DNA of 64,000 nt from Aquabacterium humicola (lineage in GTDB: Bacteria; Pseudomonadota; Gammaproteobacteria; Burkholderiales; Burkholderiaceae_C), in the NCBI RefSeq assembly GCF_030167915.1, contig NZ_JARGNB010000005.1, forward strand, positions 1-64,000, given 5' to 3'. A model generated the notes under the pieces. The model did no database searches and was not told the origin of the DNA. It saw nothing but the letters and a program-made list of their open reading frames with translations. The position numbers and the translations under genes were made by a program. Shown here piece after piece: positions 127 through 26,834 of this stretch (position 1 is its first letter; every line of letters starts with the position of its first letter).

Positions 127-1971
127 CAGTGGTCCATCCCCCTGGATCGGTCAAGCTCGCCGCCAGCGCTCCGCGTCCTGGCGCGAGACACGAGGGCGGG
201 CGACGCGCTCAGGATCAGCCGTGATGGAAAGTGGCTGGCGGCCGAAGCCTCCAATCGCACAGTCAGTCTCTGGCGTCGTGAACAGGACGGTGCCCTGAGC
301 TTCGTGACGAGCCTGGCAGGGCATGACGGCAACTTCGTTGCCGACATCGAGTTCAGCGCCGACAGCCGATACCTGGCCACGACAGGAGGCATGATCATCC
401 TGCTGTGGGACCTCGCCCGCGCGACCAGCGGGATGGCGGCGCGCGTGCTGCGCGGACATGACCACACGGTCAAGGACCTCCTCTTTCTGCCGAACAGCAG
501 GCTGCTCGCCAGCGCGGGAAGCGATGCGCATGTGCGCCTATGGGGACTCGACGAGGAGCCGGTGATCCTGCCGGACCATGAGGACCTTGCCAGCAGCTAC
601 TACTACGACTTCGAGGCCGTCTTCAGCGACGACGGGCGAAGGGTAGCGACGTCCAGCCGCACGCTGCAGAAGACCCGGGTCTGGGACCTGCGGGAGCGTG
701 CGCCGGGACTGTCTCCGCTGGTGCTCGAGGGAAAGGCTCACATGGCCAGCAAGCTGGCCTTCTCCGCAGACGGAAACCGGCTTGTGGGATCGGATGCACA
801 GGACTTCATCGATTCCAAGAAGCCGCGCAGCATCTGGGTCTGGTCCCTCGGCCCAGCCGAGGGGGGCTTGGCCGCGCCCCTCACCGTGGACACCGGCATG
901 CCTCTCATTGAAGCCGGCATCAGCCGGACGGGCGAACTGATTGCGGTGGCCTCGGAAGAGGCGGTCTGGCTCTGGAAGGCGACCGAATCCGATCTCGTGA
1001 GTGCCGGCAAGCTGCCGCTGCCGAAGGTCAGGGCGCTCGCTTTCGATCCGCTGGGCAAGAGATTGATAACTGGCAGCGCCTCGGGTGAAGTGCATCTATG
1101 GGAACTGGATGCGTCGGGCGCCCCGAGATCCAGCCACCTGCTCGGCAAGCACAAGCGGGACGTGATGTCGGTCGTCGTCAGCGAGGATGGGCGCTGGTTC
1201 GCGGCCGCGGGTTACGATCACGAGGCCACGATGTGGCAGCAGGCTGCGGACGGGAGCTTTCGGCAGGTCGTGCTCAGCGGTCACTCCGACTGGATATCCG
1301 CCCTGGCGTTCAGCGAGAAGAACGAATTGGTCAGCGGCGGCGCCGACGGCACAGCGCGGTTCTGGCAAGTGGACCCACGGGACCTGTCGGTGCGCTCCAC
1401 CGAGCTGAGAGGCCACAACGGGTTGGTCTTTGACGTGGCCGTGCGCGGCAACCTCATCGTCACGGGCGGCATGGATCGGACCGCCAGACTATGGAGGCGC
1501 GACAGCCAAGGCGCCGTGGTAAGCGTGCTGCTTCCAGGCCACACCGGCTACGTCCGCAGGGTTCGGATCTCGAAGGACGGGGCAAGAGTGCTTACCGCCA
1601 GCTTCGACGGAGCAGTCCGGATCTGGAGGGCGCGGATCGATGACCTCCTGGAGGCAGCCGATCGAAGGGCGATCCGCAACCTGTGCGATGCCGAGTGGTC
1701 GCGGCACATGGGTGAGGCAGGCCCGCATCGTCCCACCTTCCCGCGCTTGACGACCGAAGAATCCGGGCACGTTGAAGCGGCGACCTGCAATACGACCAGG
1801 CGAGGTCTCGGATTCGCAATCACCGGTCGTACGTCGGGCAAGCCAGAGCCAAGTTCGGCCGCGTCCGCCGCGCATCGCTGCACCAGTACCTCTTCGACAT
1901 CGGCATGCAGCGGCGGTCGAGCTGTGACCCCGAGGATTTCTGAGCCGGCTCCCAAGAAACAGAAGCCCTGA
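127..1971 (+). pseudogene. WD40-repeat protein, 5' end removed by the IS insertion
   Basis: The frame is open from the IS end through 1971. It carries a series of WD40 blades recognisable by the spacing SxDG(R/K)xLAxA..D..(V/I)xLW, for example TVSLWRR just before 304, then IILLWDL, HVRLWGL, EVHLWEL, TARLWRR and VRIWRAR. A GTG at 304 could be read as a start, but WD40 sequence continues in frame upstream of it, so the true N-terminus is missing. WD40 proteins of this type are scaffolds and often follow an NTPase, protease or kinase domain; that part is lost. After the last blade a segment RNLCDAEWSRHM resembles the usual closing stretch of such proteins (RNLTxxEW). The remaining ~75 residues are low-complexity and look like read-through in a wrong frame. 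Probably non-functional. Confidence 0.7.
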
Positions 1972-7066: not shown

Positions 7067-7461
7067 TCCGCCCGGTGTCCGCCCGCCACGTCGCGGCAGT
7101 GCTGGCCACGGTGCTCGCCGGCAGCGCGCCTTCCCTCTCCGCATCGGGGCCGGAACGAACCCCGGTCGAGGACATCAAGAGCTTGATGCTCGCGGCGATC
7201 GAGGCACCCGACGGCCGCGCCAAGGGGACGCTCTCCGGCCAGGTGGCCGACGCGCTCACCCAGCGCTTCCGTGGAACGTCTCCGGTCTACATCGACGTCT
7301 CCACCGAGCGACGGTTCGCGCAGCCCGGTTGCAGCCGGCTCCAGCTTCGCATCTGGCAGGAGGGCGTGCGCCTGCCTGGCTCCCGGGAAGGTCGACGGCA
7401 GACCATCGAGATCGGCATCAACTACTGCCGCGACGGCAAGCCACCGCGGTCGCTGCAATGA
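7063..7461 (+). CDS. Small exported protein between traN and traF, function unknown
   Basis: About 132 residues. GTG at 7063 overlaps the traN stop as GTGA and has GGGGAG six bases upstream, so it is preferred over ATG at 7057, which abuts that site. The N-terminus (RHVAAVLATVLAGSAPSLSA) looks like a signal peptide. The mature part has two cysteines (in AQPGCSRLQL and GINYCRDG) that could form a disulfide in the periplasm, matching a TraF thioredoxin-like neighbour. I do not recognise the family. The stop overlaps the traF start (ATGA), so it is translated as part of the transfer operon and probably belongs to the mating-pair apparatus. Confidence 0.65.
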   Translation: MIRPVSARHVAAVLATVLAGSAPSLSASGPERTPVEDIKSLMLAAIEAPDGRAKGTLSGQVADALTQRFRGTSPVYIDVSTERRFAQPGCSRLQLRIWQEGVRLPGSREGRRQTIEIGINYCRDGKPPRSLQ

Positions 7462-8363
7462 AGCGTCAGGATCCTCCACGGCCGAAGGGACGGTTGCAGG
7501 CAGGCTTGCGCCAGCGTCGCCTTGTCGTCCTCCTGCTGGCGGCCCTTTCAACGCTGGCCGCGCCCGCGCAAGACCTGGACTCATCGCGGGCGTACTGGCA
7601 GGACGCATGGCGGGGCTGGCACTTCTACGAGGAACCGGAAGCAAAGCCGCTCGCGCCTGCACGGCCCACACCCCGCCAGCCGAAGCCTGGTGCACGCGTA
7701 CCCAGCCACGAGAACAAGCCGCCCGAGGTGCGCGAGCTTGAGCGCCTGCAGCGCGAGCTGGACGAAGCCCGCAGCGTCGCGATCATTCGCCCCACGGAGT
7801 CCAACGTGCGCCGCTACATGGCGATCGAGGCACGCGTGGTCTCGCAGGCCTCGACGTTCGCCGACGTCGCCCAGCGCATTGCATGGTCGGACCCGGAGCT
7901 TGACCCGACGCTGCAGGGCCGCCCCGTGAACGCCAGGGCGCTGGAGGTCTTCGAGCAGGCCCAGGCCGCGGAGCGCTCGCGCCAGGTCGCTTCCCTCGGC
8001 CGCGACCACGTGCTGCTGTTCTTCTTCCGCAGCGACTGCTCCTACTGCCACGCGTTCGCGCCGACGCTCGAGGCCTTCAGCGCGAAGCATGGCCTCAAGG
8101 TGATTGCGGTCACCATCGACGGCGGCACCCTGCCCGGGTTCGAGGATGCCCGGCGAGACAACGGTATCGCCACGACGCTGCGCGTCGGCCAGGTGCCCGC
8201 GGTCTATCTCGCCCAGCCCTACAGCGGCCTGATCACGCCCATCGGTTTCGGCGTGCTGTCCGAGGCTCAGCTCATCGAGCGCATCGCGACGGTCGCTTCG
8301 CCCCCTCCGGCGGCACCACTCGATTCCCCCACCCTCGCTTCGGCCACCGGCCGGTCTCGCTGA
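7458..8363 (+). CDS. traF: TraF, thioredoxin-fold conjugation protein
   Basis: A 301-residue periplasmic protein. It has an uncleaved or cleaved signal segment (RLVVLLLAALSTLAAPAQ, about residues 21-38), a helical N-terminal part including YWQDAWRGWHFYEEP, and a C-terminal thioredoxin fold with the redox motif CSYC (Cys194, Cys197) in FFFRSDCSYCHAFAP. F-plasmid TraF lacks the CxxC pair, but many relatives keep it and are thought to help disulfide formation in TraN, TraH and TraU. The many cysteines of TraN fit that role. The start ATG at 7458 overlaps the preceding stop as ATGA; a longer frame begins upstream at 7329 but has no signal peptide at its start. Confidence 0.85.
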   Translation: MKRQDPPRPKGRLQAGLRQRRLVVLLLAALSTLAAPAQDLDSSRAYWQDAWRGWHFYEEPEAKPLAPARPTPRQPKPGARVPSHENKPPEVRELERLQRELDEARSVAIIRPTESNVRRYMAIEARVVSQASTFADVAQRIAWSDPELDPTLQGRPVNARALEVFEQAQAAERSRQVASLGRDHVLLFFFRSDCSYCHAFAPTLEAFSAKHGLKVIAVTIDGGTLPGFEDARRDNGIATTLRVGQVPAVYLAQPYSGLITPIGFGVLSEAQLIERIATVASPPPAAPLDSPTLASATGRSR

Positions 8364-8381
8364 CGAAGAAGGGAACCCATC

Positions 8382-9836
8382 ATGCAAGGTCATCGTCCAG
8401 CCAGGCGTCAAGCCCGGCATCTGCTTTCGCTCGTCACTGTCATCTCGATGACGGCATCGCAGCAACAGGCGTTCGCCGGCGACCTGAACAGCGAAGTCAA
8501 CAGCATGTTCGACAACCTGGGCACGATCGGCAACTACACCGCGCCGGGCGCCTTCCGCGGCCAGGCCTTCAACACCTACACCGGTGGCAGCCTCTTCATG
8601 CGCTCGCCGAGCAAGGTCTACCAGCTCGCCGCGATCCAGTTCCCGAGCGCCCGCGCCGGCTGCGGCGGCATCGACGTGTTCGGCGGATCCTTCTCCCACA
8701 TCTCGGCGACCGAGTTCAAGAACATGCTGAAGAACATCACGGCCGCGTTGCCTGGTGTCGCATTCCAGCTGGCGCTCGAGTCCGTCTCCCCGATGCTCGG
8801 CGGCCTGACGAAGTGGGCCAAGGGCCTCGAGACCTGGATCAACAACGCCCGCATCAATTCCTGCGAGACCGCGAAGGCGATCGTCAGCACGGCCGCCGAC
8901 GCAGCCGGCTTCAGCTCGCAGGAAGCCTGCGCTGACCTGGCCATCACGATGGGCATGGAGAGTGACCGGGATGCCGCGCGGCGCCGCTGCGCCAGCGACC
9001 GGCCCGGCGTCCTGGGCACTGCGCGCTCCTCCGGCGACCCGAACATCCGGAACCGGGCGCCCTTCGTCGGCAACCTCACCTGGAAGGCACTCCAGCGCGC
9101 CGGCAGCTACCTCGACGACCAGGAGCGCGAGCTCATCATGAGCATCGTCGGCACGGTGATCTACTTCCCCGAGGAAGCCGGCCGCGACCCCGAGCCCATC
9201 GCCCCCACCATCACCTCGATCGGCCAGCTGCTCTACGGCCAGGCCGCCGGGGCGGGATCCGGCGTCACGCAGCACCTGCTTCGCTGCAACAACTACTCGG
9301 AGTGCGACGCGGTCTCGCTGAACACCGCGTACGCGCACACACCCTTCACCGCGAAGGTCGAGGCCATGATGCGCTCGATCGCGGACAAGATCGCGACGCG
9401 CACCGCGATCCCGAACAACTCGGCCGAGGTCGGCTTCGTCAACCAGACGACGGAGCCGGTCTACCGCATGCTGTCGATCGGCTCGACGATCCCCGGCTCC
9501 GGCCTCGCGGACAGCCTGATCGCACAGTACCGCGACGTCATCGCCGCCGACTACGCCTACGTGTTCCTGGAACGCAACCTGCGCCTGGGCATGGCGGCGC
9601 TCGACAAGACCTACACGCTGCAGCAGGACCAGCGCGAGATGGCCAGCCAGGTGCGCCAGCGCGCGCAGTCCATGCTCCTGCAGCTGTCCCAGGAGAAGAG
9701 CGTGCTGTACCAGAAGGTCGGCTCGTTCCGCGCTGTCTCCGGACACCTGGAGGAACTGGAGCGCCAGCTGCGCTCCAGCATGCCCCAGCACGTGATGGAC
9801 ATGCTGGGCCAGCAGGCCGCGCTCCAGCGGCGCTAG
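8382..9836 (+). CDS. traH: TraH, F-type pilus assembly / mating-pair formation protein
   Basis: A 484-residue exported protein with a basic N-terminus and signal peptide ending around AFAGDLN. The region FRGQAFNTYTGGSLFMR, followed by ARAGCGGIDVFGGSFSHI, is the conserved N-terminal signature of TraH proteins. Conserved Cys residues occur in SCETAKAIV and further on, and the C-terminal third is helical. TraH works in the periplasm or outer membrane for pilus extension and retraction with TraF, TraW and TrbI. A ribosome site AAGGGA precedes the ATG. It lies 18 bases after traF and 22 before traG, consistent with one operon. Confidence 0.88.
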   Translation: MQGHRPARRQARHLLSLVTVISMTASQQQAFAGDLNSEVNSMFDNLGTIGNYTAPGAFRGQAFNTYTGGSLFMRSPSKVYQLAAIQFPSARAGCGGIDVFGGSFSHISATEFKNMLKNITAALPGVAFQLALESVSPMLGGLTKWAKGLETWINNARINSCETAKAIVSTAADAAGFSSQEACADLAITMGMESDRDAARRRCASDRPGVLGTARSSGDPNIRNRAPFVGNLTWKALQRAGSYLDDQERELIMSIVGTVIYFPEEAGRDPEPIAPTITSIGQLLYGQAAGAGSGVTQHLLRCNNYSECDAVSLNTAYAHTPFTAKVEAMMRSIADKIATRTAIPNNSAEVGFVNQTTEPVYRMLSIGSTIPGSGLADSLIAQYRDVIAADYAYVFLERNLRLGMAALDKTYTLQQDQREMASQVRQRAQSMLLQLSQEKSVLYQKVGSFRAVSGHLEELERQLRSSMPQHVMDMLGQQAALQRR

Positions 9837-9858
9837 CAGCGCATCGCCCGGAGCAGCC

Positions 9859-12636
9859 ATGTGGGAGATCTACGCCTACCAGAACGCCGACAGCCTCTTC
9901 GGCATCTTCAACGCGGCAGCCGCGATCCACTCCTCCCCCGACTACATGGCCGCGGTCGCCGCGGTCGCGTTCTGCGGCTTTGCCGCTGCGCTCGTGGCCT
10001 ACGCGTTCGCACCGGAGAAGCTGCAGGGCTGGAAATGGCTCGCCACGGTGGTCCTCGTCTTCTCGGTCCTGATCGTTCCCCGCGTCGACGTGGGCATCGT
10101 CGACAAGACGGGTGGCTCCGCCGTCAAGGTCGTGTCGAACGTCCCCTTCGGGATCGCATTCCTCGGCAGCGTCTCCAGCACCATCGGCCACACGCTGACG
10201 AACCTCTTCGAGACCGCGTTCCAGGTGATACCTGGCGCTGGCGCGCTGCCCTCCGAGCTCAGCTACGAGAAGAACGGCCTGATGTTCGGCAACCGGCTGG
10301 TCCGCAGCACCGGTGCAGTCGTCTTCCAGGACCCGGCGTTCAGGACCGACCTGATCAACTTCATCCACAACTGCACCATGTACGACCTGGTCGACGGCAC
10401 GCTCGATCCGGGCGTCTTCTCGCGATCCGCGGACGTGTGGGCCCTGATGGGCTCGCCCAATCCTGCTCGATTCACGACGCTCTCGAGCACAGGTAGCAGC
10501 ATGACCGTCGAGACCTGTCCCGTGGCGCGGTCCAACCTCGACGGGCGCCTGCCGGTGCAGCTCTCGCGCATCCAGGGCAAGCTGGCGTTCCAGATGCAGC
10601 CAACCCTCCCCGGAGCGACGGCAGCGTCGGTCATCGCCGGACAGATCCAGCAGGCCTACCTGCGCAATGGCCTGGCCACCGCGGCATCCACCGCATCCGA
10701 CCTCATTCGCCAGAACGCAGTCCTCAACGCGATCGACGACACCAGCAGCATCATCGGGCAGAAGGTGAACGACCCGGCGGCCATGGTGCTGGCGGTCGGG
10801 CGTGCGCAGGCCGTGGCCCAGCAGAACGCTGCCTGGATCACCTACGGCAAGGTGGCGGAACAGTCCCTGCCGGTCCTGCGCAACGTCGTCGAAGCGATCA
10901 CCTACGCTGTGTTCCCGCTGATGGTGCTGCTGCTCCTGCTGACCAACGGGCGCGAGACGATGCTGGCGTTCAAGGGCTATGCCTCGGTCCTCATCTGGAT
11001 CCAGCTGTGGCCGCCGCTGTACGCCATCCTCAACTACATGGCGTCGATCTACGCGGCCTACGACCTGGCCGCTGCGGCCGACCTGGGAACGGGAACGAAG
11101 GCGCTTGCCCTCCAGACGGCTTCAACGATCTACTCCCGCGCCGTCTCCGGCGAGGCCGTGGTCGGGTACATGGCCATCAGCATCCCCTTCCTCGCCTGGG
11201 CGGCGCTCAAGCGCATGGAGACCTTCGGCACTGCACTGGTGGGCGGCCTCTCCGGCCTGCAGGGGATGGTCTCGGGGGCCACGGGAAGCGCAGCCGCCGG
11301 CAACCTCTCGATGGGCAACGTCTCGATGGACCAGATGCGACTGTCGCCCGACCGCAGTTCCGCCTTCATGAGCACGTGGCAGAGCGATCTCACCGGGAAT
11401 ACAACAACGACGAACGTGCTCACCGGCAAGACCGCGATGAGCCTCATGAGGAACCAGGGCTTCGCGTCACGGGTGGTCTCCGTGCGCGTCAGCGAGCAGG
11501 ACGTGCAGGACGCCGGCAGGCAGGTCGACGCAGCAAGAAGCGAAGCCGTCGCGGCCACGAACGAACGATCCGCCGTCCTCACCGAAGCATTCTCAAAGGG
11601 TGTCGCGAAACTGCGATCGACCAGAACCTCGACAGGTTCGACATCGAGCAGCTTCGAGCAGTTCGGACAGGCACTCGACCGGCTCGACCAGATCACCAGG
11701 TCGGTCTCGGACACCACTGGACTAGCGCAATCGCAGGTTGCCCAGATCGCTTTCGGTGCGCATGGCCAACTTGGAATCTCCACCCCAATTGCGGGGGCAA
11801 GGATCACGGGCGATGCCACGAAGGGCTACTCCACAGCGTTGTCTGACGACCAACGAAAGATTCTCGGCGCGATGACGTCGAAGCAACTGTCGGAATTCAA
11901 GCAGTTCGGCGATCGCATCTCTCGCGATACGGCATTTTCAACCGTCGCTGCCCAGGACGAACGTGAAGCCAGGGAACTGGCGTCGCGCCTGAGCACCAGC
12001 GCGGCACGCGCCGCGCGTGCGGACGCGAGCCTGGCCGAGAGAACCTCCTACTCCGAGCGCGTGGCCTCTGCCTACGAACGAGGCGAAGTCATCTCGATTG
12101 ACCTGGCCCAGGATCCGCACAACCTCGCAATGTTCAGGCGCTACGCCGAAGACTACGGAGGAACAAGCGCTGCTGCGCGCGCCCTCATGGAAGCCGAGCT
12201 TGCCCGCCAGTCGCTCCGTCCCAGCCGAACGTTCTCGGATCGAACCGCCATCCCCGTATCGTTCGAGCCCGTGAGGGAGCAGCACCGGCAGGAGGCGACA
12301 ACCCTCGCGTCGAAAGCCGATCCGGACTTGCAGCGCCAGCGCAATGACGCCGATGTCGCAAGATCCGCACAGGAGGCTCGGTCAGGAAAGCCGCCAGGAT
12401 ATCGCCGGTCGAATGTTCGTGAACAGATTCGGACGCAAGGCGCAAGCATCCAGCAAGACACGCGCGATCGAGACGACACATTCGAGCGAAAGGTCGATGC
12501 GTCCCGAACAGAGGACGGGACGCTGCTCTCGCGCACGTCACTCCTCAAACGATCCGCCCAGCGAGTGGCCGCTGACGCAAAGGATTCAGTCGACACGGCC
12601 AAGGAGGCGGTCCGACGGCTACTCGATCGCAAGTGA
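9859..12636 (+). CDS. traG: TraG, F-type inner-membrane mating-pair stabilisation protein
   Basis: A 925-residue protein. It begins with MWEIYAYQN followed by hydrophobic segments (about residues 31-52 and 57-75). A further membrane block sits around residues 345-460, including VFPLMVLLLLLTNGRE and the region with MASIYAAYDL. The long C-terminal half (after ~470) is hydrophilic, Gln/Ser/Arg-rich and helical, like the periplasmic TraG part that acts in entry exclusion and donor-recipient contact. Sequence from about 11.4 kb onward is less GC-rich and less biased in codon third positions than the N-terminal half, as seen where this domain diversifies. The stop codon lies directly against the stop of the opposite-strand gene (TGATCA). 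Confidence 0.88.
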   Translation: MWEIYAYQNADSLFGIFNAAAAIHSSPDYMAAVAAVAFCGFAAALVAYAFAPEKLQGWKWLATVVLVFSVLIVPRVDVGIVDKTGGSAVKVVSNVPFGIAFLGSVSSTIGHTLTNLFETAFQVIPGAGALPSELSYEKNGLMFGNRLVRSTGAVVFQDPAFRTDLINFIHNCTMYDLVDGTLDPGVFSRSADVWALMGSPNPARFTTLSSTGSSMTVETCPVARSNLDGRLPVQLSRIQGKLAFQMQPTLPGATAASVIAGQIQQAYLRNGLATAASTASDLIRQNAVLNAIDDTSSIIGQKVNDPAAMVLAVGRAQAVAQQNAAWITYGKVAEQSLPVLRNVVEAITYAVFPLMVLLLLLTNGRETMLAFKGYASVLIWIQLWPPLYAILNYMASIYAAYDLAAAADLGTGTKALALQTASTIYSRAVSGEAVVGYMAISIPFLAWAALKRMETFGTALVGGLSGLQGMVSGATGSAAAGNLSMGNVSMDQMRLSPDRSSAFMSTWQSDLTGNTTTTNVLTGKTAMSLMRNQGFASRVVSVRVSEQDVQDAGRQVDAARSEAVAATNERSAVLTEAFSKGVAKLRSTRTSTGSTSSSFEQFGQALDRLDQITRSVSDTTGLAQSQVAQIAFGAHGQLGISTPIAGARITGDATKGYSTALSDDQRKILGAMTSKQLSEFKQFGDRISRDTAFSTVAAQDEREARELASRLSTSAARAARADASLAERTSYSERVASAYERGEVISIDLAQDPHNLAMFRRYAEDYGGTSAAARALMEAELARQSLRPSRTFSDRTAIPVSFEPVREQHRQEATTLASKADPDLQRQRNDADVARSAQEARSGKPPGYRRSNVREQIRTQGASIQQDTRDRDDTFERKVDASRTEDGTLLSRTSLLKRSAQRVAADAKDSVDTAKEAVRRLLDRK

Positions 12637-13317: not shown

Positions 13318-13443
13318 ATGAACAAGGACCAGCAGCAGGCGCAGGACGCCGAAGTCGTCGACCTCGGCGACGCGAAGGAAGTGACGGAGGGCCCGAAGGG
13401 GCCCAACCCCGAGGACCACCCGGTCCTGAAGTTCCAGGACTGA
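13318..13443 (+). CDS. Lasso peptide precursor (A gene)
   Basis: A 41-residue peptide. The leader (24 residues) ends with VVDLGDAKEVTE, which closely follows the proteobacterial lasso leader pattern (DLGDA...xTx), with the required Thr at position -2. The predicted core is GPKGPNPEDHPVLKFQD (17 residues). Gly1 would form a lactam with Glu8 (8-residue ring) or Asp9 (9-residue ring), leaving a tail of nine or eight residues. Lys14, Phe15 and Gln16 are candidate steric plugs. Summing residue masses gives 1873.93 Da linear and 1855.92 Da after lactam formation. Three prolines in the ring segment are unusual. A good ribosome site precedes the ATG. The B, C, D genes follow directly, which makes the call strong although the peptide is tiny. 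Confidence 0.92.
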   Translation: MNKDQQQAQDAEVVDLGDAKEVTEGPKGPNPEDHPVLKFQD

Positions 13444-13466
13444 TCGGCCGCCGCTAGGCGACCCGG

Positions 13467-13486
13467 AGGCGTGCCGCGGCACGCCT
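13467..13486 (+). terminator. Palindromic hairpin between precursor and B gene
   Basis: AGGCGTGCCGCGGCACGCCT is a perfect 20-base palindrome, able to form an 8-bp stem with a CGCG loop. It starts 23 bases after the precursor stop. It is GC-rich and followed by TTCCTCC rather than a T-run, so it may act as a partial terminator, attenuator or mRNA 3'-end stabiliser that makes precursor mRNA more abundant than the enzyme mRNA. Confidence 0.6.
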
Positions 13487-13599
13487 TCCTCCGATAGCCC
13501 AGGCGCCCCCCGCACCGGGAGAGATGTGCCCGGTGCCCGTCCCTTGCCATCCCGGCAGTCCGGGCGCCTCCCGCGACCGCCAGCCAACCGGCCTCCAGC

Positions 13600-14364
13600 A
13601 TGCTCACGCGCGTTCAAGCTCCTCGTGCCCCGGCATCCGAAGGCGATGCACGCCTTCACCTTGCAAGCCATGTGCGCGCATGCGAAGTCGATGGCCAGGT
13701 GATCCTCCTCGACCTCCTTCGTGGTCGGTACCTTGGTGTCGGTCCCAGCCAGGCGCTGGCGTTGGCGAGTCTCGTCACCGGCTGGCCCCTTGCCTCCAGG
13801 CCGACGGATGGCGCCGAAGCACCCATCGAGTCCGTGAACGTCTCACGGCTCGCCGCCAGGCTTGTCGCCCAGGACCTCCTGTCCGACGAGCCTCGCGACG
13901 AGCCCGTACCTGCGCCGTTCGAACGCCCCGAGGCAACGCTTCAAGGGCAGCACGCGTCCCCCGATCGCGCACCGATCACAACGGCGACGCTCTTCCGATT
14001 CCTCAAGGCCGCCTCGAAGGCCTACCTGTCGTTGCGCTTCCGCTCCCTGCAGTCCATCGCCACCACGGTGTCGGCGCGGCGCCAGCGGTCGGCATCGCGG
14101 ACTTCCGTCGACAAGGCCGCGCTGCGCGATGCCGTCGCGGTCTACCTGCGGCTGCGTCCGCTCGCCTTCACCGTCCGCGACAAGTGCCTCTTCGACTCGC
14201 TCGCGCTGCTCGAGTTTCTCGCGGCCGAGGACATGCATCCGCATTGGATCATCGGCGTGAAGGCCCATCCCTTCACGGCGCATTCGTGGGTCCAGAGCGG
14301 TCCGCTCGTGCTCAACGACCACCACGAGCACGTGCGCAGCTACCGCCCGATCCTGCGCGCCTGA
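13600..14364 (+). CDS. Lasso peptide B protein: RRE leader-binding domain fused to leader peptidase
   Basis: 254 residues. The N-terminal part (about 20-95) is a PqqD-like RiPP recognition element: HLASHVRACEVDGQVILLDL, then GRYLGVGPSQALAL. It binds the precursor leader. The C-terminal part (about 125-254) is the transglutaminase-like cysteine protease of the McjB/B2 family that removes the leader. The catalytic residues are visible as Cys196 (VRDKCLFDSLALLEF), His228 (AHSWVQSGPLVLND) and Asp240. Both domains in one chain is the usual proteobacterial form, unlike the split B1/B2 of actinobacteria. No strong ribosome site precedes the ATG. The gene lies 156 bases after the precursor, past the hairpin, and 21 bases before the C gene. 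Confidence 0.92.
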   Translation: MLTRVQAPRAPASEGDARLHLASHVRACEVDGQVILLDLLRGRYLGVGPSQALALASLVTGWPLASRPTDGAEAPIESVNVSRLAARLVAQDLLSDEPRDEPVPAPFERPEATLQGQHASPDRAPITTATLFRFLKAASKAYLSLRFRSLQSIATTVSARRQRSASRTSVDKAALRDAVAVYLRLRPLAFTVRDKCLFDSLALLEFLAAEDMHPHWIIGVKAHPFTAHSWVQSGPLVLNDHHEHVRSYRPILRA

Positions 14365-14385
14365 GCGTCCCGGAAGCAGCCGGCC

Positions 14386-16169
14386 ATGTTCCGCTTCCTC
14401 GGCATCGCCTGGAACGACGCCAGCGAAGCCGCCAACGCCGCGGCGGCGCGCCTTTGCGCCACGGTCAAGGACCGCGCCGACTGGACACGCGTCGCCGGAA
14501 CCCCGGGCCTGGATGTGTTCATGACCGGCGCCCGCGGGGGGGCCAACCGCCACTACGACCTCGGGCCTCGCGGCGTCATCCTGGGCAAGCTGTTCCTGCG
14601 CGTCCGGCTCGACACATTCACGGTGCCCGTCCATGTCGATTCCATCGATGACCCGGAGCGCCTGCAGGAGAGCGGCGGCCGGGCGCTCGTCGGCGGGTAC
14701 TGGGGACGATATGTCGCCTTCGTGCGATCGCCGACCGGCATCACCTCCATCGTCAGGGACCCCAGCGGCACCCTGCCCTGCCACCTCATGCAGCACGACG
14801 GCGTGTACATCGCCTTCTCCTGGCTGGAGGACGTGATCGACCTGATGCCCTCGATTCCCCGCCCGGCGATCAGGTGGAGCGCGCTCGCCGCACAGGTCCG
14901 GCTTGGCGAGCCGAGTGGCCGCGAGACCGCGCTCGAGGGCGTCACTCAGGTCGTCGCGGGTGAAGCGGTCTACCTCGTTCATCCGAGGCCGGAACGTGCG
15001 CTCGTCTGGAACGCCACCGACCATGCGCGCGTCGTCGCCACCGAGGACCTGGCCGAGGCGGCCACGCTGCTCAGGCGAACCATGCTCCACTGCGCAGCTT
15101 CATGGGCCTCGTGCTATCCCAGGGTGCTGCTGCGCCTGTCGGGCGGCGTCGACTCTTCCATGCTGCTCGCCTGCCTGGCGCATGAAGAGATCGAAGCCGA
15201 CGTCACCTGCCTGAACTACCACTCGCCGGGCGCAAACAGCGACGAGCGTGCATATGCCAGGCTTGCCGCTGCCAGGTTCGATCGCAAGCTGGTGGAGCTT
15301 GAACGACCGTCCGCCACTCTCCTCGATGGGGTACTTCGCATTGCGAGGACGCCGAGCCCGACCAGCTACGTCGGCCGCATCGGCACCGCCCGTTCGGACG
15401 CGGAGGTCGCCCGGGCGCATGGTGCTCCTGCCATGTTCACGGGGGGTGGCGGCGACCAGCTGTTCTTCGAGCTTCACCACTGGTGGCCGGCAGCGGACTA
15501 CCTTCGCCTGCGCGGTCTCGACGGAGGCTTCCTGGGCGCGGCGCTGGATGCAGCGCGCCTCGGTGGTCTCTCGCTCTGGAAGACATTGCGGCTCGCGCTC
15601 GCCGACCGCTTTCGCTCCGGCCCACTTCCGCATGACTCGCCTGGCGCGGGGTCGCTCATCGACCCCGAGGCTCTGGCTGCCGACGCACTGGCGCCCTTCG
15701 AGCATCCGGCCATGCGTCACGTCGACGGCTTGCCGATCGGCAAGCTCATGCAGTTGCAAATCCTGCTGGCGCATGGCGGCTACTACGACCCCTTCGAGGG
15801 CGCTCGCGCTCCCGAGCTCGTCAACCCCTTCCTGTCCCAGCCGCTCATCGAGCTGTGCCTGGCCCTGCCCACCTACGTGCTGGCGCATGGCGGCCACGGC
15901 CGCGCGCTGGCCCGGCAGGCCTTCGCGTCCGACCTGCCCCCCGAGATTGCGGCGCGGCGGTCCAAGGGCGGCATGTCGGAGATGGTCAAGGCACTGCTGC
16001 TGGACAACCTCGCCTTCGCGCGCTCCCTCCTGCTCGACGGAGAGCTCGTCCGCCGCGGCATCCTCCGCCGCGACAAGGTCGAGGAGGCCTTGTCCGGCCG
16101 CCCGTCGACCCTCTCCGGCAATGTCGTGGAGATCCACGACCTCATCTCGACCGAGGCGTGGATACGACG

Positions 16170-16182
<13 letters not shown>
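14386..16182 (+). CDS. Lasso peptide C protein: ATP-dependent lactam synthetase (asparagine synthetase-like)
   Basis: 598 residues. It activates the side-chain carboxylate of ring residue 8 or 9 with ATP and closes the isopeptide bond with Gly1. The C-terminal synthetase domain has the PP-loop LSGGVDSS (252-258) and a downstream FTGGGGDQLFFE. The N-terminal ~200 residues correspond to the glutaminase-like domain of asparagine synthetase B but start MFRFLGIAWN without the catalytic Cys2, so no ammonia is made from glutamine, as expected for McjC-type cyclases. GGAAG precedes the ATG. Its stop overlaps the exporter start region (ATGA at 16179), so C and D are coupled. Confidence 0.92.
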
Positions 16183-18041
<1,859 letters not shown>

Positions 18042-18188
18042 CCTGGGCACCATCCCCAATGTCCGTGCGTCCCAAGGCCTTGGGCGAGCGCATGAATTCC
18101 AGGGGTGCCGCGTCCTTCATGCGTTTGTATGATTTCACGTCGAATCTTCCCGAGCCAACCTCCTCCTCCCTCCCGGCTCGGGCTTCCG

Positions 18189-18217
18189 GCCTTCCCTGCA
18201 ACGATTGCAGGGAAGGC
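18189..18217. terminator. Bidirectional terminator between exporter and isopeptidase genes
   Basis: GCCTTCCCTGCAA (18189-18201) pairs perfectly over 13 bp with TTGCAGGGAAGGC (18205-18217) around a three-base loop CGA, followed on the plus strand by AGCTTTCT. It lies between two genes that converge and is the only strong hairpin there, so it can stop transcription from both sides. Confidence 0.7.
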
Positions 18218-18260
18218 AGCTTTCTCGCATCTTTCATCCCGTGGGAAGCCGGACCAGCTG

Positions 18261-20615
18261 CTACCAGGGGCTGACGTCCGAACAGCGCGGCTTCCTGTCC
18301 TCGACCTGCTTCAACTCCGCCATCTGCCGCCACCGCGCATATTGCGTGCGCAAGGTTTCGGTGCTCTCGTCGGGCAGGAATGGTTCCGAGCGCTCCTCGC
18401 CCTTCAGCCAGAAGCGATACCAGTCGACGTTGCCCTGCAGGGAGATCATCCGGTCGCCCGGACGGCCGAGGTTGTGCGTGCCCCCGGGCAGGACGACCAT
18501 CTCCGCCGGCTTGTACTGGCGACGCAGCAGCGCATGGATGTCCCAGTTGTTCAGCACCCAGGGGCCGTAGGTCTCGATGCGCATCGCCGCCCGCACGCAA
18601 TGGGTGTGAAGGGCCGGGTCGGTCCGGATCCAGCGCTCCAGCCCTGCCCCGAAGGGCCCCCCGCCGTTGGTCGCCTCCTTCTTCGACAGGATGCCGTCCC
18701 TGGCGCCATAGGACACGGTCATCGAGAACAAGGTATTGGCATCGCCGTCGATCAAGGATGCGGCACGGATGGGGGCGTCGGAGAAGGTCACGAGGTTCAG
18801 CACCTGCTCGCCGGTCATGCTGAAGCCGATGATGCCGATCCTGCCGGGATCGGCCGTGCCGTCCGCCACCAGAGACTTGATGGCGGACTCGGTCGAATCC
18901 AGGAAGGCCTGCATGCGCTCGCGAAAGTCCGCACGCGCCCTGCCGACCGGCCTGGTCGGCAGGGCCAGCACCAGGATGCCCTCGCGCAGGAAGGCCCGTC
19001 CCGGGAACCCGCTGGTGTAGCCGTCGGCGACGTTCGAACCGTCGAGGTAGAACCTCTCAGGCGAATAGCCGTAGGTCTGGATGACCAGGGGATGGCGCCT
19101 GCCCGGGACGAAGCCCGCGGGCAGCATCAGGCCGCCCACCCACTGGCGATTCCTTGCATCCGTCCAGGCGTAGGAGCGGGTGGTGCCCCAGTCGCCCGCG
19201 GAGTACTGCGGGTTGAGGTGGGTCAGGCGCACATGCTTCCCGGCGGGACCGACGGCAATCACATCGGCCGGCTGGTCTGGCTTCTGGTCGATGCGCAGCC
19301 TCCAGGCTGCGGTCGCCTGTGCTGCGGACGAGGCCGCAGGACTCGCTGCATCGGCCCTGCCGAGCTCGAGCCAGCCGCCACCATCGCGTCGCACGAAGCG
19401 CCGGCTCTTCTCGCCATCGAGCACGACGAAGCCGTCCTGCCCGCCGCCGGTGCCGTATGCATTGTCCAGGCGGTGCTCGAGCGCAGCGACCACCTCCCAC
19501 CTGTTGCTGTCCGGCCAGTACTCGACCACGTGCGATGCACCGTCCCGCGCACCGGTGCCCCTGGGAAGCAGGGTCCCAGCAAGGATCACCGAGCGGCCGT
19601 CACGCAGCCAGAGGCGGTCGGAGCGCATCTGCGACGCAGGGCTCGCAGCATCATCGGGCGCATCGACGATGGCCTGCGCGCTGCCATCGGACAGGCGGTA
19701 CGCGACCAGTCGACGCGGGATGTAGCTGCCCGGGCTGGTGAAATACCCGAGCGGGTCGATCGACACCGCCGGCCCGAATCGGGCGGTCATCTCCCTGACC
19801 CATGGGAACATGCCTGCCCACTCGAGCTGCCGCTGCGGCGTCGGAACCGGCAGCACCGCCCAGCGACCGTCCGGCGATATGTCCACGCGCGGCCGCAAGC
19901 CGTTCTCCGGCATCGACTCGCCAAGCTGCCGCGCGGGCTTGCGCGAGCCGCTCTCGGTGGTGAGGAAGAGATAGCGCCGCCGCTGCGCCCGCAAGTCGTT
20001 CTGGCCGAACTTCACGTCCCAGAACGAGTTGTTCCCGACGACGACGCTGCGCGCACCCGGCTTCAGCGCCGGGTTCGGATCGAAGGATGTGTAGACGATG
20101 CGCCGCAGGTCCTCGGAGATCGCGAAGCTCTCGATGCCGCGAGGCTCGCGGGTCAACTGCTCGAGCCGGCGCGTCGCCACGTCCAGCTTGAACACCTGGC
20201 GGGCCGAGCCATCGAGCCGCGCCAGGAAGACAAGCGCACCGTTGCCTGCCCACCTGGGCTCGCGGACGACGGGGTCGACGGAATCGTTGTCCTGCGAGGA
20301 CTCGATCGTGAACACTGTCCGGGGAGGTCGTGGCCGGCCGGCGGCCAGTCGATCGCGGTCGAGGTCCAGCATGCGGACCTCGTAACGGGTGCAGTCGCCT
20401 CGCACGTCCGCGCGGCGCGTCACGATGAAGGCACGGCTGCCGTCGGGCGAGACCTGCCGGTTCAACTCGTCCTCGTCCTGGCCGTGCACGATCGATGTGA
20501 ACTCCACGACATCCCTGACCGTGGGGCCGACCGCCGTCGCGGCGGCACTTCGAGGCACGCCCCCGGCGCACAACAGAAGCACGGCGAAGACTGCGGTGAT
20601 GAGTCGGTGCGGCAT
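18261..20615 (-). CDS. Lasso peptide isopeptidase (E protein), prolyl-oligopeptidase-like
   Basis: 784 residues from the ATG at 20615 (an earlier in-frame start at 20648 lacks a signal-peptide-like beginning). The N-terminus MPHRLITAVFAVLLLCAGG is a signal peptide, so the enzyme is exported. The middle ~500 residues form a beta-propeller. The C-terminal ~250 residues are an S9 alpha/beta hydrolase with the nucleophile Ser599 in GIIGFSMTGEQ and His714 in LPGGTHNL. In known proteobacterial clusters (astexin, caulonodin types) this family opens the isopeptide bond of the matching lasso peptide and linearises it. It is downstream of the receptor gene on the same strand, convergent with the biosynthetic genes. 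Confidence 0.85.
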   Translation of the reverse strand: MPHRLITAVFAVLLLCAGGVPRSAAATAVGPTVRDVVEFTSIVHGQDEDELNRQVSPDGSRAFIVTRRADVRGDCTRYEVRMLDLDRDRLAAGRPRPPRTVFTIESSQDNDSVDPVVREPRWAGNGALVFLARLDGSARQVFKLDVATRRLEQLTREPRGIESFAISEDLRRIVYTSFDPNPALKPGARSVVVGNNSFWDVKFGQNDLRAQRRRYLFLTTESGSRKPARQLGESMPENGLRPRVDISPDGRWAVLPVPTPQRQLEWAGMFPWVREMTARFGPAVSIDPLGYFTSPGSYIPRRLVAYRLSDGSAQAIVDAPDDAASPASQMRSDRLWLRDGRSVILAGTLLPRGTGARDGASHVVEYWPDSNRWEVVAALEHRLDNAYGTGGGQDGFVVLDGEKSRRFVRRDGGGWLELGRADAASPAASSAAQATAAWRLRIDQKPDQPADVIAVGPAGKHVRLTHLNPQYSAGDWGTTRSYAWTDARNRQWVGGLMLPAGFVPGRRHPLVIQTYGYSPERFYLDGSNVADGYTSGFPGRAFLREGILVLALPTRPVGRARADFRERMQAFLDSTESAIKSLVADGTADPGRIGIIGFSMTGEQVLNLVTFSDAPIRAASLIDGDANTLFSMTVSYGARDGILSKKEATNGGGPFGAGLERWIRTDPALHTHCVRAAMRIETYGPWVLNNWDIHALLRRQYKPAEMVVLPGGTHNLGRPGDRMISLQGNVDWYRFWLKGEERSEPFLPDESTETLRTQYARWRQMAELKQVEDRKPRCSDVSPW

Positions 20616-20714
20616 GCCCAGCGGGTGCCAAGGAGTCCGGTTCAGCATATTCGATGGTCGCGGCTCTGCGCAGGGCCTGCCTGCCGGCAGGCCACTGTGC
20701 TTGCGTGTTAGGGA

Positions 20715-20732
20715 GCGCGGCGTGCGCCGCGC
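20715..20732 (-). terminator. Hairpin in the gap between receptor and isopeptidase genes
   Basis: GCGCGGC (20715-20721) pairs with GCCGCGC (20726-20732) around GTGC, 21 bases beyond the receptor stop on the minus strand. A second palindrome, GCCTGCCGGCAGGC, lies at 20679-20692. Neither has a T-run. They could attenuate transcription from receptor into isopeptidase. Confidence 0.4.
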
Positions 20733-20753
20733 GTTCGGATCCTGCGCCGGGCG

Positions 20754-23700
20754 CTACCAGTTGACCGTCAGCCGGGCCGTGCCGTAGCGCCCCCGCCAGT
20801 CAGACTGCGTGACGTCGTAGTGCGGGTGCGTGCCGACGAAGTCAGGCTGCCGGTCGGCGAGGTTCAGGATGCCAAGCGTCAACGATGCCGAGCGTGCCCC
20901 CGCCATGGAGAGTCCGAGCCGCTTCAGGTCAAGCGTGGCCGACAGGTCGTGCACCCAGTCGCCGCCGAGTTCCCGACCGCTTCCGCCGATGTCAAGGTAG
21001 GTGCCCACGTGCCTGCTCGCCAATGCCAGGCTCCATGCCCCGAGGTCCAGGGCGGCGGACAGGCGGCCCTTCCACCTGGGAGACCAGAAGTCCGTCGCCC
21101 GGCGCCCGAGCCGATGCTCCACCGGAGAGCCCGGCGCCAGCATGACGTCGTAGCGGATCGTGCGTGTGGCGCTGGCCGCGACGGTCCACTTCCCGAGGTC
21201 CGAGCGTCCGGAGGCGGAAGCCTCCAGGTCCACGCCGGCGGTGTCGAGCCTGCCGAAGTTCACCTCCGAGTACAGGACCCGGGTCACCGCACCCGGTACC
21301 CCGGCGCCCTCCGAAGGCTGGCGCAGGACGAACCCCGGGAACAGGGCCTCGTGGTCCAGCGCGGACTGCGGCGCCAGCGTCGCGATCATGTCCTTGATCC
21401 TGACGCGCCACGCCGACAGCCCGAGGCGCAGTCCTGGATCCGGCTCCCAGAGTCCGCCCAGCGACAGCGCGCGCCCGCGCTCGGGCTTCAGGCCGGGGTT
21501 TGGCCCGCGGACAACCTCGCCACCGATGATGGGTGCACCGGCCAGGGCCGGGTCCACGAGCCCGAAGAGTTCGGTCGTGAACGTGGAGGTGTCGAACCCC
21601 GTCTGCAGCAGCGTGGGCGGCTTGAACGAGGTCGCCCCCGCAGCGCGGATCAATGCCGTGGGCAGCGGGCGGAACTCGAGCCCGGCCTGCCAGGTGTTCG
21701 CGCCGCCGAAGTCGCTGTAGTTGTCGCGGCGACCCGCCAGTGTCAGGGCGGCGATGGTCCGGCCGCGTCCCTCGGCTGCCTGTCCTCGCAGCAGCGGAAG
21801 GCGCACCTCCCCGAACACGGCACTCGCACTCCGGCTGCGGTCGATCCGGAAGCCGAGCGGCCCGGCCTGCGACGTCTCGTAGCGGTCGCGCGACGCCTCG
21901 GCGCCGGCGACGACCTCGACGGGGGTGCCGAGCAGCATGCCCGTGGTGCCGGTCGCGAAGACCGACGCGATGTCCTTCCTCCCGCGGAAGTCCCGCACGG
22001 TGTCGGACCAGATGGCATGCAGGACGTCGTCGCTCGCGGCGCGCCCTGTGGTGAACGGGTTCAGCGCAGTGGACGGGTCGGCCGACGCCAGGGCCGAGGT
22101 CCGAGCCGCCGCATTCACGGTGTCGTTCGGCAGCCGCCTTGTCCCGTCGTCGATGGACGATGACAGCGCGGCCTCCACATCCCACCCCGAGCCGAGCCCG
22201 CCCTGGACACCGAGCACCGCGCGCGTGAAGTCGGAAGTGCGATCGATGCCGGTCATGCCGTTGCCGGTCCCCAGTCGCGCAGTCACCCTGACCGGAGCAC
22301 CGAACGGGTTGTGGGGATTGCCGGGGCCCACGAGGACATTGTTCAGCAGGAGTGCGCTCTCCTGCGAGCGCGCGCTGTTGTGGTTGAAGGTCAGTTCGCC
22401 GAAGACCGACCAGTCCTGCGAGATGCGCCGCTGCCCGGCTGCATGCAGCGCCGTGTCCTCCGTCTCGTGAACGAGGGCGAATCCGTTGCCGTTGGCCACT
22501 GTGCTGCAGAGGTTCGGCTGTCCGGCTGTCGCGAGGAAATCACTGATCGTGAGTGGCGAGTCCGCGCTTGCGCGAGGTATGCCTGCCAGGCTTGCGTTCA
22601 GGCCCGGCAGGCTCCCCGCATTGCCGCTCGTGACCGTCCCGGGCGCGCAGTTCCGCGTGCGGGCATCCGGTCCGCCGAAGCGCCTGTAGTCCATGTCCCT
22701 GAAGAAGGATCTCTCGGCCATCATCAGCGGCGTCGTCCTGCCATGCGAGCCGATCAGCACGAAGGAGCCCTGCGCATCGCCACCGCCCGTCGCGAACGAG
22801 ATGCTGCCGTCTCCGATGCCCTTCCCGCTCCCCATGCGCGCGTCCAGGACGAAGCCGTCGATCGACTTGCGCAGGATGACGTTCACCACGCCGGCGAGTG
22901 CATCGCCACCGTAGATGGCCGACGAGCCGACGGGCACGATCTCGATGCGCTCGATGGCAGTGATGGGGATCAGGTTCAGGTTGAAGAAGTTCGCCGAGGA
23001 CGAACCGACCGCATGGACGCGCCGCCCGTTGATCATGACCAGCGTCGAGCCGACCGGCATCCCGCGCAGCTGCACCGAGCCCTGGCCGATCAGGGCGCTC
23101 TGGCCGCCCTCGCCGGCGCTGACCGATGCCTCGTTCAGCCCGCTCAGGAAGCGCTCCAGCGTCGGTTGCCCGCTGCGCAGCAGGTCCTCCCTGCCGTACA
23201 CGTTCACCGGAAGGGGTCCCTCGGACTCGATCCGCTTGATGCGTGATCCGGTGATCTCGATCTTCGTGGGTTCGATCGCATTCTTGGCCGTTGCCGTCGG
23301 CACGGGGCCGCCTTCCTGGGCTTGCCGGGAAGGCGCCTGGGCGAGCCTGCCGGCGGCATCAGGCGCACCGGGTGAATCGCCGACGGAACTGCGCGGACCG
23401 GGCCGCGCGGTGTCCGGCGCACCGCCTTCGCCAGGGGCGGCCCTCACCACGACGGAGCCGTCCTCCATCACCGACGCTGTGAGGCCGGTGCCGTCCAGGG
23501 CACGGGCAACGGCCTCGGCACCGGTCAGGCGGCCTGAGAAGGCACGGCAGACACGGTTCGAGACCACGCCCGGATCGAACAGTATCGACATGCCGGTCTG
23601 CCTCGCGATCGACCTCAGCGAATCCGCCAACGGCTGTGCCGGGCTCTCGATGGCAAAGCGCTCGCCCGGAGGCCGCTGCGCCGCGGCGAGGGTGGCGTGC

Positions 23701-23789
23701 GAAAACAGCAGCGCCACCAGCGCGACGGAACTGCCCCTGCATCGCTTCGGCTCCATGGAACGACGGGGAGGATGTACTCCGAACGACAT
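20754..23789 (-). CDS. TonB-dependent outer-membrane receptor with N-terminal STN signalling domain
   Basis: About 1011 residues from the ATG at 23789, chosen because GAGGA lies five bases upstream on the coding strand; a GTG at 23843 extends the frame but lacks this support. The signal segment is SSVALVALLFSHATLAAAQ. An STN/secretin-like domain follows (FAIESPAQPLADSLRSIARQ to SVMEDGSVVV, about residues 45-115). After a Pro/Gly-rich linker come the plug (VQLRGMPVGSTLVMINGRRV, IYGGDALAGVVNVIL) and a long beta-barrel ending in W. Lasso clusters with an isopeptidase usually carry such a receptor for energy-dependent uptake of the peptide. STN domains normally talk to an inner-membrane anti-sigma (FecR) partner, but no FecI/FecR genes are adjacent. 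Confidence 0.88.
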   Translation of the reverse strand: MSFGVHPPRRSMEPKRCRGSSVALVALLFSHATLAAAQRPPGERFAIESPAQPLADSLRSIARQTGMSILFDPGVVSNRVCRAFSGRLTGAEAVARALDGTGLTASVMEDGSVVVRAAPGEGGAPDTARPGPRSSVGDSPGAPDAAGRLAQAPSRQAQEGGPVPTATAKNAIEPTKIEITGSRIKRIESEGPLPVNVYGREDLLRSGQPTLERFLSGLNEASVSAGEGGQSALIGQGSVQLRGMPVGSTLVMINGRRVHAVGSSSANFFNLNLIPITAIERIEIVPVGSSAIYGGDALAGVVNVILRKSIDGFVLDARMGSGKGIGDGSISFATGGGDAQGSFVLIGSHGRTTPLMMAERSFFRDMDYRRFGGPDARTRNCAPGTVTSGNAGSLPGLNASLAGIPRASADSPLTISDFLATAGQPNLCSTVANGNGFALVHETEDTALHAAGQRRISQDWSVFGELTFNHNSARSQESALLLNNVLVGPGNPHNPFGAPVRVTARLGTGNGMTGIDRTSDFTRAVLGVQGGLGSGWDVEAALSSSIDDGTRRLPNDTVNAAARTSALASADPSTALNPFTTGRAASDDVLHAIWSDTVRDFRGRKDIASVFATGTTGMLLGTPVEVVAGAEASRDRYETSQAGPLGFRIDRSRSASAVFGEVRLPLLRGQAAEGRGRTIAALTLAGRRDNYSDFGGANTWQAGLEFRPLPTALIRAAGATSFKPPTLLQTGFDTSTFTTELFGLVDPALAGAPIIGGEVVRGPNPGLKPERGRALSLGGLWEPDPGLRLGLSAWRVRIKDMIATLAPQSALDHEALFPGFVLRQPSEGAGVPGAVTRVLYSEVNFGRLDTAGVDLEASASGRSDLGKWTVAASATRTIRYDVMLAPGSPVEHRLGRRATDFWSPRWKGRLSAALDLGAWSLALASRHVGTYLDIGGSGRELGGDWVHDLSATLDLKRLGLSMAGARSASLTLGILNLADRQPDFVGTHPHYDVTQSDWRGRYGTARLTVNW

Positions 23790-26003: not shown

Positions 26004-26834
26004 ATGCCCGCACCCTCCAACGATCCGCAGTTCGATGCCAAGGCGCTCAAGCGCGGCGACCTTGTCGCAGAGCAGGTCAAGCGCTGGATCACCGAGAAGA
26101 ACCTGCGTCCGGGCGACAAGCTGATGAAGGAAGGCGAGCTGCAGGCGCACTTCGGCGTCGCCAAGGGGACGATGCGCGAAGCACTGAAGGCGCTCGAGGT
26201 GCAGGGCCTCGTGCGAATCAGCACCGGGCCCAACGGCGGCGCCACCGTCGTCGAGGTTCCGCTGCAGCGCACCGTGCAGTCGGTGCAGAACTACCTGTTC
26301 TTCAAGGAAGTCGACGTTGAAAGCATCTATGCGCTTCGGCGCCTGGTCGAGCCGGAGCTCGCCGCGGGCGCGCTGCCGCACCTGACGATGGCCGACGTGG
26401 CCGCGCTCGAACGCAGCATCGCGTTCTGCTCGCCCATGTCCTCATCCGAGGACGTCAGCGCGCAGCAGCGCCAGGAGGACCTGCACTTCCACGAGATCCT
26501 CGCCAACGCGAACCCGAATCCGCTGCTGAGGCTCGTCGCGCAGCTCATCAACCAGTTGCTGCGGCACGTCGTCGAACTCGGAGGCGCGACGACGCACCAG
26601 CAGTACCAGCGCTTCGGTTCGGCCAACGTGCACGCACATCGCGGCATCCTCGATGCCATCAAGCGCAACGACGCCGATGCCGTGCGCCAGCTGATGCTCG
26701 AGCACATTGACGAAGCGGAGGCGCACGTGCGCAAGCTCCAGGGCGTGGTCAAGCAACGCCTGCTCCTCGACTCGGATCTGGACCTTCGCGTGCGCCCGAG
26801 CCGCGCTGGCCGCAAGACCAGCACCAAGGAGTGA
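26004..26834 (+). CDS. GntR family regulator, FadR subfamily (FCD domain)
   Basis: 276 residues. The N-terminal winged helix (about 18-85) contains DLVAEQVKRWITEKNLRPGDKL with KEGELQAHFGVAKGTMREAL, the typical GntR recognition helix. The C-terminal FCD ligand-binding domain (about 100-245) shows the metal/ligand His and Asp positions in DLHFHEILANANPNPLL and HRGILDAIKRND. FadR-type proteins repress nearby catabolic genes until a carboxylate or amino acid ligand binds. It diverges from the amidase and lies directly upstream of livH with six bases between, so it probably controls the whole cluster. Confidence 0.88.
   Translation: MPAPSNDPQFDAKALKRGDLVAEQVKRWITEKNLRPGDKLMKEGELQAHFGVAKGTMREALKALEVQGLVRISTGPNGGATVVEVPLQRTVQSVQNYLFFKEVDVESIYALRRLVEPELAAGALPHLTMADVAALERSIAFCSPMSSSEDVSAQQRQEDLHFHEILANANPNPLLRLVAQLINQLLRHVVELGGATTHQQYQRFGSANVHAHRGILDAIKRNDADAVRQLMLEHIDEAEAHVRKLQGVVKQRLLLDSDLDLRVRPSRAGRKTSTKE

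What the first reader, a model, noticed from the sequence alone, without database searches (positions are those of the whole stretch)
13318..23789. Complete lasso peptide gene cluster with import and hydrolysis genes
A 41-residue precursor, fused RRE-protease B (Cys196-His228-Asp240), C synthetase (SGGVDSS, no Cys2), ABC exporter, isopeptidase and STN-TonB receptor lie together. Every piece needed to make, export, re-import and open a lasso peptide is present and intact by sequence. The predicted core does not match any lasso peptide that I remember.
Basis: partly seen in the sequence, partly recalled or inferred. Interest (0 to 1): 0.92.

Follow-up and report, generated by a model that had tools for sequence, protein, structure and literature searches.

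The report
Lasso peptide cluster with exporter, isopeptidase
This bacterium carries genes that look able to make, export, recapture and cut open a small knotted (lasso) peptide; the peptide itself looks new, but the gene set recurs in related bacteria and resembles one already published cluster.

Summary
A (13318-13443), B, C and D lie in a row on +, facing E (isopeptidase) and T (TonB receptor) on -. B has Cys196-His228-Asp240, invariant in 25 of 25 clade proteins, and an RRE: its three best structure matches are the lasso RRE protein TbiB1. E's best structure match is the lasso isopeptidase SpI-IsoP. The lactam mass 1855.92 Da checks.

It is not alone. Of 24 named loci holding both C and E, 19 also have D; with the window, 20 of 25. 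Exporter plus isopeptidase, which a 2022 review knew only from rubrinodin, is thus usual in this clade.

'Complete' needs one correction: the sigma-FecR pair found beside T in 23 of 24 relatives with enough flank is missing here. A similar pair lies on contig C8, which holds the genome's only coupling-protein hit, while the window holds its only TraH hit; one split conjugative element is my inference.

Ring closure (Glu8 or Asp9) is open. No product, uptake or cleavage is shown. A new member of a known kind.

The parts
13318..13443 (+). A: 41-aa lasso precursor; core GPKGPNPEDHPVLKFQD at 13390-13440
   Evidence: Frame and leader/core; 23 distinct precursors of the clade, this one included, share LGDAK..T.G (the search pattern required part of that motif)
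13600..14364 (+). B: fused RRE (about residues 19-90) and leader peptidase (about 128-254), Cys196-His228-Asp240
   Evidence: NF033537 over cut-off; 25 of 25 invariant; model pLDDT 86.6, TbiB1 ranks 1-3
14386..16182 (+). C: lasso cyclase, asparagine-synthetase-like, no Cys2
   Evidence: PF00733; SGGVDSS; no Cys2 in 25 of 25
16170..18041 (+). D: ABC exporter, overlapping the end of C
   Evidence: PF00664 and PF00005; motifs; same place in 19 of 24 named loci with C and E
18261..20648 (-). E: lasso-type isopeptidase with an apparent signal peptide (by eye); Ser610 and His725
   Evidence: NF033523 under cut-off; Ser610 and His725 invariant in 15 of 15; AtxE2 and SpI-IsoP by profile; SpI-IsoP Foldseek ranks 1-6
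20754..23789 (-). T: TonB-dependent receptor with STN-like N-terminus (longest frame begins GTG at 23843)
   Evidence: PF07715 and PF00593 over cut-off, PF07660 STN under cut-off

Best explanation
A lasso peptide cluster of the isopeptidase type with its own exporter. The RRE of B holds the leader, its protease half cuts after Glu24, and C activates an acid (Glu8 or Asp9) and joins it to Gly1 around the threaded tail. D pumps the peptide out. T brings it back through the outer membrane with TonB energy, and E, periplasmic by the look of its N-terminus, opens the ring. The STN-like domain of T suggests that binding is also signalled through a FecR to a sigma factor, which here would have to act from elsewhere, perhaps the pair on contig C8. 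Shown by sequence or predicted fold: the families, the catalytic residues of B, the recurring gene order. Inferred: product, topology, export, uptake, cleavage, signalling. The benefit (ligand scavenging, self-sensing or turnover) is unknown.
For: B, C, D, E, T families and folds; catalytic residues; precursor features; the A-B-C-D / E-T order in 19 of 24 named loci with C and E; FecR and sigma beside T in 23 of 24 named loci with enough flank; a similar pair on C8 of the same genome.
Against: E, C and STN score under curated cut-offs. The E model superposes only loosely on SpI-IsoP (TM 0.56-0.59, rmsd 8-10 A) and an ordinary S9 carboxypeptidase is at rank 7; its catalytic acid is not assigned. 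No sigma/FecR at the locus. The C8 pair belongs to a subfamily that also occurs in genomes with no T match at E 1e-80 (G581, G656, G491, G526: 4 of 10 tested). No expression or product data.
Confidence: 0.75

Rival explanations
1. An antibacterial lasso peptide: D gives export and self-protection, and T and E clear re-entering peptide as a second immunity step rather than to recover or sense anything.
For: D is present, and a review links D genes to antibacterial lasso peptides (PMC7549694, passages). E with an apparent signal peptide would destroy peptide in the periplasm.
Against: A dedicated receptor would raise uptake of a toxic peptide. The review PMC9266682 says isopeptidase-type lasso peptides lack antimicrobial activity except astexin-1 (passages). 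FecR-sigma beside T in 23 of 24 relatives suits sensing or nutrient uptake.
Confidence: 0.12
2. A decaying cluster: having lost its sigma-FecR pair, it is no longer switched on and is on the way out.
For: Sigma and FecR are absent at the locus; STN is under cut-off; related loci show missing parts (L067 without FecR-sigma; L068 with a cut C).
Against: All six frames are open and the motifs of B, C, D and E intact; a similar sigma-FecR pair exists elsewhere in the genome.
Confidence: 0.1
3. The C8 sigma-FecR pair has nothing to do with this cluster and serves another, lost or unlinked, receptor.
For: The subfamily occurs in 4 of 10 tested genomes without a T match at E 1e-80; C8 FecR is unresolved among 24 lasso-cluster and 8 other rows (one 'other' row, L084, in fact lies beside a T); the ends of C8 share no 21-mer with the first 2 kb of the window.
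Against: No receptor was seen beside the C8 pair; sigma is 60-71% identical to those of four lasso clusters; C8 has the only coupling-protein hit and the window the only TraH hit of the genome.
Confidence: 0.4

Closest known systems
Rubrinodin cluster (Xiu et al. 2022; original paper not held, known here only through passages of the review PMC9266682)
   Same: ABC transporter, isopeptidase and TonB receptor in one lasso cluster
   Different: Rubrinodin's cluster has FecI/FecR-like regulators; the window has none at the locus. Sequence kinship not tested
Astexin/benenodin-type isopeptidase clusters of Alphaproteobacteria
   Same: A-B-C facing E-T, apparent signal peptide on E, STN-type receptor
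   Different: Those fetched (3) have GntR before A, FecR-sigma after T, and no transporter between C and E; the window has D, no GntR directly before A and no FecR-sigma
Rubrivinodin (Rubrivivax gelatinosus)
   Same: A single intact B protein (PMC5067487, passages); core acids at 9-10 as in many cores of this clade (rubrivinodin core recalled, from no call)
   Different: Different core (recalled); its cluster was not identified among the loci fetched. Rubrivivax benzoatilyticus (L044) has E and T but no D
Microcin J25-type clusters (A-B-C-D)
   Same: B, C and an ABC exporter D (PMC11006600, passages)
   Different: By established knowledge no isopeptidase or dedicated receptor; McjD was not among the 60 best of 290 PDB matches shown for D

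Membership tests
Lasso peptide biosynthetic cluster | Precursor with Thr at -2, Gly1 and an acid at 7-9 of the core | tested here: met
   Sequence; family models hit below cut-off
Lasso peptide biosynthetic cluster | B protein with RRE and Cys-His-Asp peptidase | tested here: met
Lasso peptide biosynthetic cluster | Asparagine-synthetase-like cyclase C without glutaminase Cys2 | tested here: met
   the NCBIfam cyclase model is under cut-off
Lasso peptide biosynthetic cluster | Threaded macrolactam product | not testable with these tools
   Needs expression and mass spectrometry
Isopeptidase cluster (astexin type) | S9-like isopeptidase related to AtxE2 / SpI-IsoP | tested here: met
   NCBIfam equivalog cut-off not reached
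Isopeptidase cluster (astexin type) | TonB-dependent receptor beside E | tested here: met
Isopeptidase cluster (astexin type) | Sigma/FecR pair beside the receptor | tested here: not met
   a similar pair lies on another contig
Isopeptidase cluster (astexin type) | GntR regulator directly before the precursor gene | tested here: not met
   Three alphaproteobacterial GntR queries gave no hit in the window or the 34 named loci; a GntR/FCD regulator of another kind lies at 26004-26834
Isopeptidase cluster (astexin type) | No ABC exporter gene | tested here: not met
   D present
Rubrinodin-type hybrid | ABC transporter, isopeptidase and TonB receptor together | tested here: met
   against the description in PMC9266682
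Rubrinodin-type hybrid | FecI/FecR-like pair at the locus | tested here: not met
Rubrinodin-type hybrid | Sequence kinship with rubrinodin proteins | not tested
   Original paper not held; no sequence at hand

The most novel reading that the evidence does not exclude
In this clade the uptake-and-opening half (E-T with sigma-FecR) is a module separable from the making half, and lasso peptides are shared signals or scavengers: makers export them with D, and any cell with T and E senses, recovers and opens them. Two metagenome-assembled loci (L056, L065) have E-T-FecR-sigma and no detectable A, B, C or D in the roughly 10 kb beyond E; in the window the sigma-FecR switch may sit on another part of a conjugative element.
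Probability: 0.2. Interest if true: 0.65.

Novelty: new member of a known kind. Interest (0 to 1): 0.4.

Why it matters
The role of isopeptidase-type lasso peptides is called enigmatic in the review read here in passages. Clusters that seem to export, recapture and reopen the peptide narrow the options: cytoplasmic clean-up alone would need neither an exporter nor an outer-membrane receptor. That 20 of 25 clusters of this clade, the window included, pair D with E suggests that rubrinodin is no oddity, and cultured relatives (for example Roseateles saccharophilus, Rubrivivax albus, Piscinibacter sakaiensis) make the question testable.

Tried and rejected
Rejected: chance, or another RiPP or an asparagine pathway. 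Rejected: D as a stray neighbour (same place in 19 of 24 named loci with C and E).

Not settled: the ring acceptor. Aligning the E-D-N/H-P motif favours Glu8; the acid at position 9 in all 22 distinct cores favours Asp9. Not settled: D lost or gained. On the C and E trees D presence needs 4 changes, at least 3 on well-supported branches, and is no more clustered than shuffled labels (147 of 500 as low on the C tree, 162 of 500 on the E tree). Not settled: the catalytic acid of E (the profile alignment is weak there).

Led nowhere: contig-end overlap between C8 and the first 2 kb of the window; promoter scan, 0 found, and terminator scan, no more than shuffles; tRNA scan, none; exact core in papers (none, but the comparison core was not found either); the FecR tree for placing C8.

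Rows dropped: the C and E trees used 24 rows (23 named loci and the window); L068 was left out for a cut C. Of 34 named loci, 10 were not in the D count because C or full E was not in the fetched stretch. L030 was left out of the B alignment because its stretch held a stop. The FecR tree left out ten loci that repeat E loci already in it. The precursor search required part of the leader motif, so leader likeness is partly by construction; core acids were not required.

Full report
What is there. On + strand A (13318-13443), B (13600-14364), C (14386-16182) and D (16170-18041) follow one another, D overlapping the end of C. Facing them on - are E (18261-20648) and T (20754 to about 23789). The precursor has the leader MNKDQQQAQDAEVVDLGDAKEVTE and the core GPKGPNPEDHPVLKFQD; the lactam mass computes to 1855.92 Da. 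The window is bases 1-64000 of a 454-kb contig (C40) in a 7.39-Mb genome of 44 contigs.

Are the parts what they seem? B scores over the cut-off of the lasso B2 family. Cys196, His228 and Asp240 are invariant in 25 of 25 (24 named loci and the window). Its model (pLDDT 86.6) finds the lasso RRE protein TbiB1 as its first three matches, E 0.008 to 0.02; a sequence profile also gave TbiB1 as best but weak hit, E 0.45. C matches Asn_synthase and has no Cys2, like all 25 examined. D is an ABC exporter with intact motifs. E is divergent, 150.8 bits against a cut-off of 400, but a clade profile finds AtxE2 and SpI-IsoP and the predicted fold has SpI-IsoP chains at ranks 1-6 and AtxE2 at ranks 8 and 10, with an ordinary S9 carboxypeptidase at 7 and 9 and loose superposition throughout. 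Ser610 and His725 are invariant in 15 of 15; in the profile alignment Ser610 meets the serine that is alanine in the S527A AtxE2 entry. The acid is not assigned. T has plug and barrel; its STN domain is under Pfam's cut-off.

How common is it? A search with E matched 14 of 399 family genomes at E 1e-40, the window's own included, and 2 of 21 of its genus, itself and G404. A search with C over 399 order genomes at E 1e-30 matched only the window's own, with at most three candidates scored per genome. A scan of named genomes with an E alignment gave 34 loci, which I place in Burkholderiales by their record titles. In 24 of them C and E are both present; 19 have D and 5 do not (L044, L052, L053, L067, L069). 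Some are near-duplicates: L048 and L049 have identical C and E rows. Of the 24 loci with B, 23 hold a precursor of this type; L064, whose B is cut, does not. Window included, there are 23 distinct precursors and 22 distinct cores; all 22 cores carry an acid at position 9 (19 Glu, 3 Asp, the window among the Asp), and 5 have Glu at position 8, the window among them.

What is missing. Of 24 named loci with at least 2 kb beyond T, 23 have FecR and a sigma factor there; only L067 lacks both. The window has neither. Its genome has three FecR hits. One, on the 26.5-kb contig C8, is 60% identical to the FecR of the Pelomonas Root1444 cluster and lies beside a sigma factor 60-71% identical to those of four clusters, with no receptor seen beside it. 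C8 also carries a type IV coupling protein, a primase-like protein and DUF932. In this genome the coupling-protein family PF12696 has its only hit on C8 and TraH its only hit in the window, 8496-9572, beside TraN, TraF and TraG. One conjugative element broken over two contigs would fit. Against it: the ends of C8 share no 21-mer with the first 2 kb of the window, this FecR subfamily occurs in 4 of 10 tested genomes that lack a T match at E 1e-80, and C8's FecR is unresolved on the tree.

Known or new? The review PMC9266682 (passages) says that isopeptidase clusters lack an ABC transporter except that of rubrinodin, which has ABC transporter, isopeptidase, TonB receptor and FecI/FecR. The original paper is not held. 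Three alphaproteobacterial clusters fetched show GntR-A-B-C facing E-T-FecR-sigma with no transporter between C and E; one of them (L076) has an ABC transporter gene farther on, beyond sigma. Passages of PMC7549694, PMC11006600, PMC5067487 and PMC13352647, and abstract and passages of PMC12670498, fit this background; PMC10926693, PMC12446376 and PMC12427821 were seen only in passages naming rubrinodin. Searches of the held library listed no paper that I recognised as describing the betaproteobacterial set; most listed papers were not opened beyond passages, and subscription journals are largely missing. The window is thus a new member of a published hybrid kind, without the local regulators.

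Evolution. D presence needs four changes on the C and E trees, three forced by well-supported branches, so D was gained or lost more than once. C and D distances correlate at 0.94 over 19 loci, but without a species-tree control this shows only joint descent. Other parts also come apart: L056 and L065 have E-T-FecR-sigma without A-D nearby, G628 has T directly beside C with no E between (L115), and L064 has E and D 5.8 kb apart.

Most likely working. Make with A, B and C; export with D; return through T; open with E in the periplasm. E's N-terminus looks like a signal peptide by eye, as do those of the three alphaproteobacterial isopeptidases; no predictor was run. Signalling through STN and FecR is the usual role of such receptors (general knowledge). 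Every step after the gene families is inference.

Noticed in passing
L078:8825-10368 (contig C8 of the same genome): Sigma factor and FecR like those of lasso clusters, without a receptor beside them, on a contig with conjugation-type genes.
   Followed up: partly
L056:5308-12370 and L065:4078-12823: E-T-FecR-sigma loci in two metagenome-assembled genomes with no detectable A, B, C or D in about 10 kb beyond E; possible receiver-only loci.
   Followed up: partly
L115:232-4604 (genome G628): T directly beside C with no E between them; E was not matched in this genome at E 1e-40.
   Followed up: no
L062 and L067: Piscinibacter sakaiensis 201-F6 has two such clusters, one with D and one without; the second also lacks FecR and sigma.
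   Followed up: no
window 4598-12636: F-type conjugation genes TraN, TraF, TraH, TraG directly before the lasso cluster, at the left end of the contig.
   Followed up: partly
L110:2648-4769: Multi-ubiquitin/E2 and ThiF-JAB genes side by side on contig C8, a bacterial ubiquitin-like set.
   Followed up: no
window 304-1971: Open frame of 555 codons full of WD40 repeats near the contig end.
   Followed up: no
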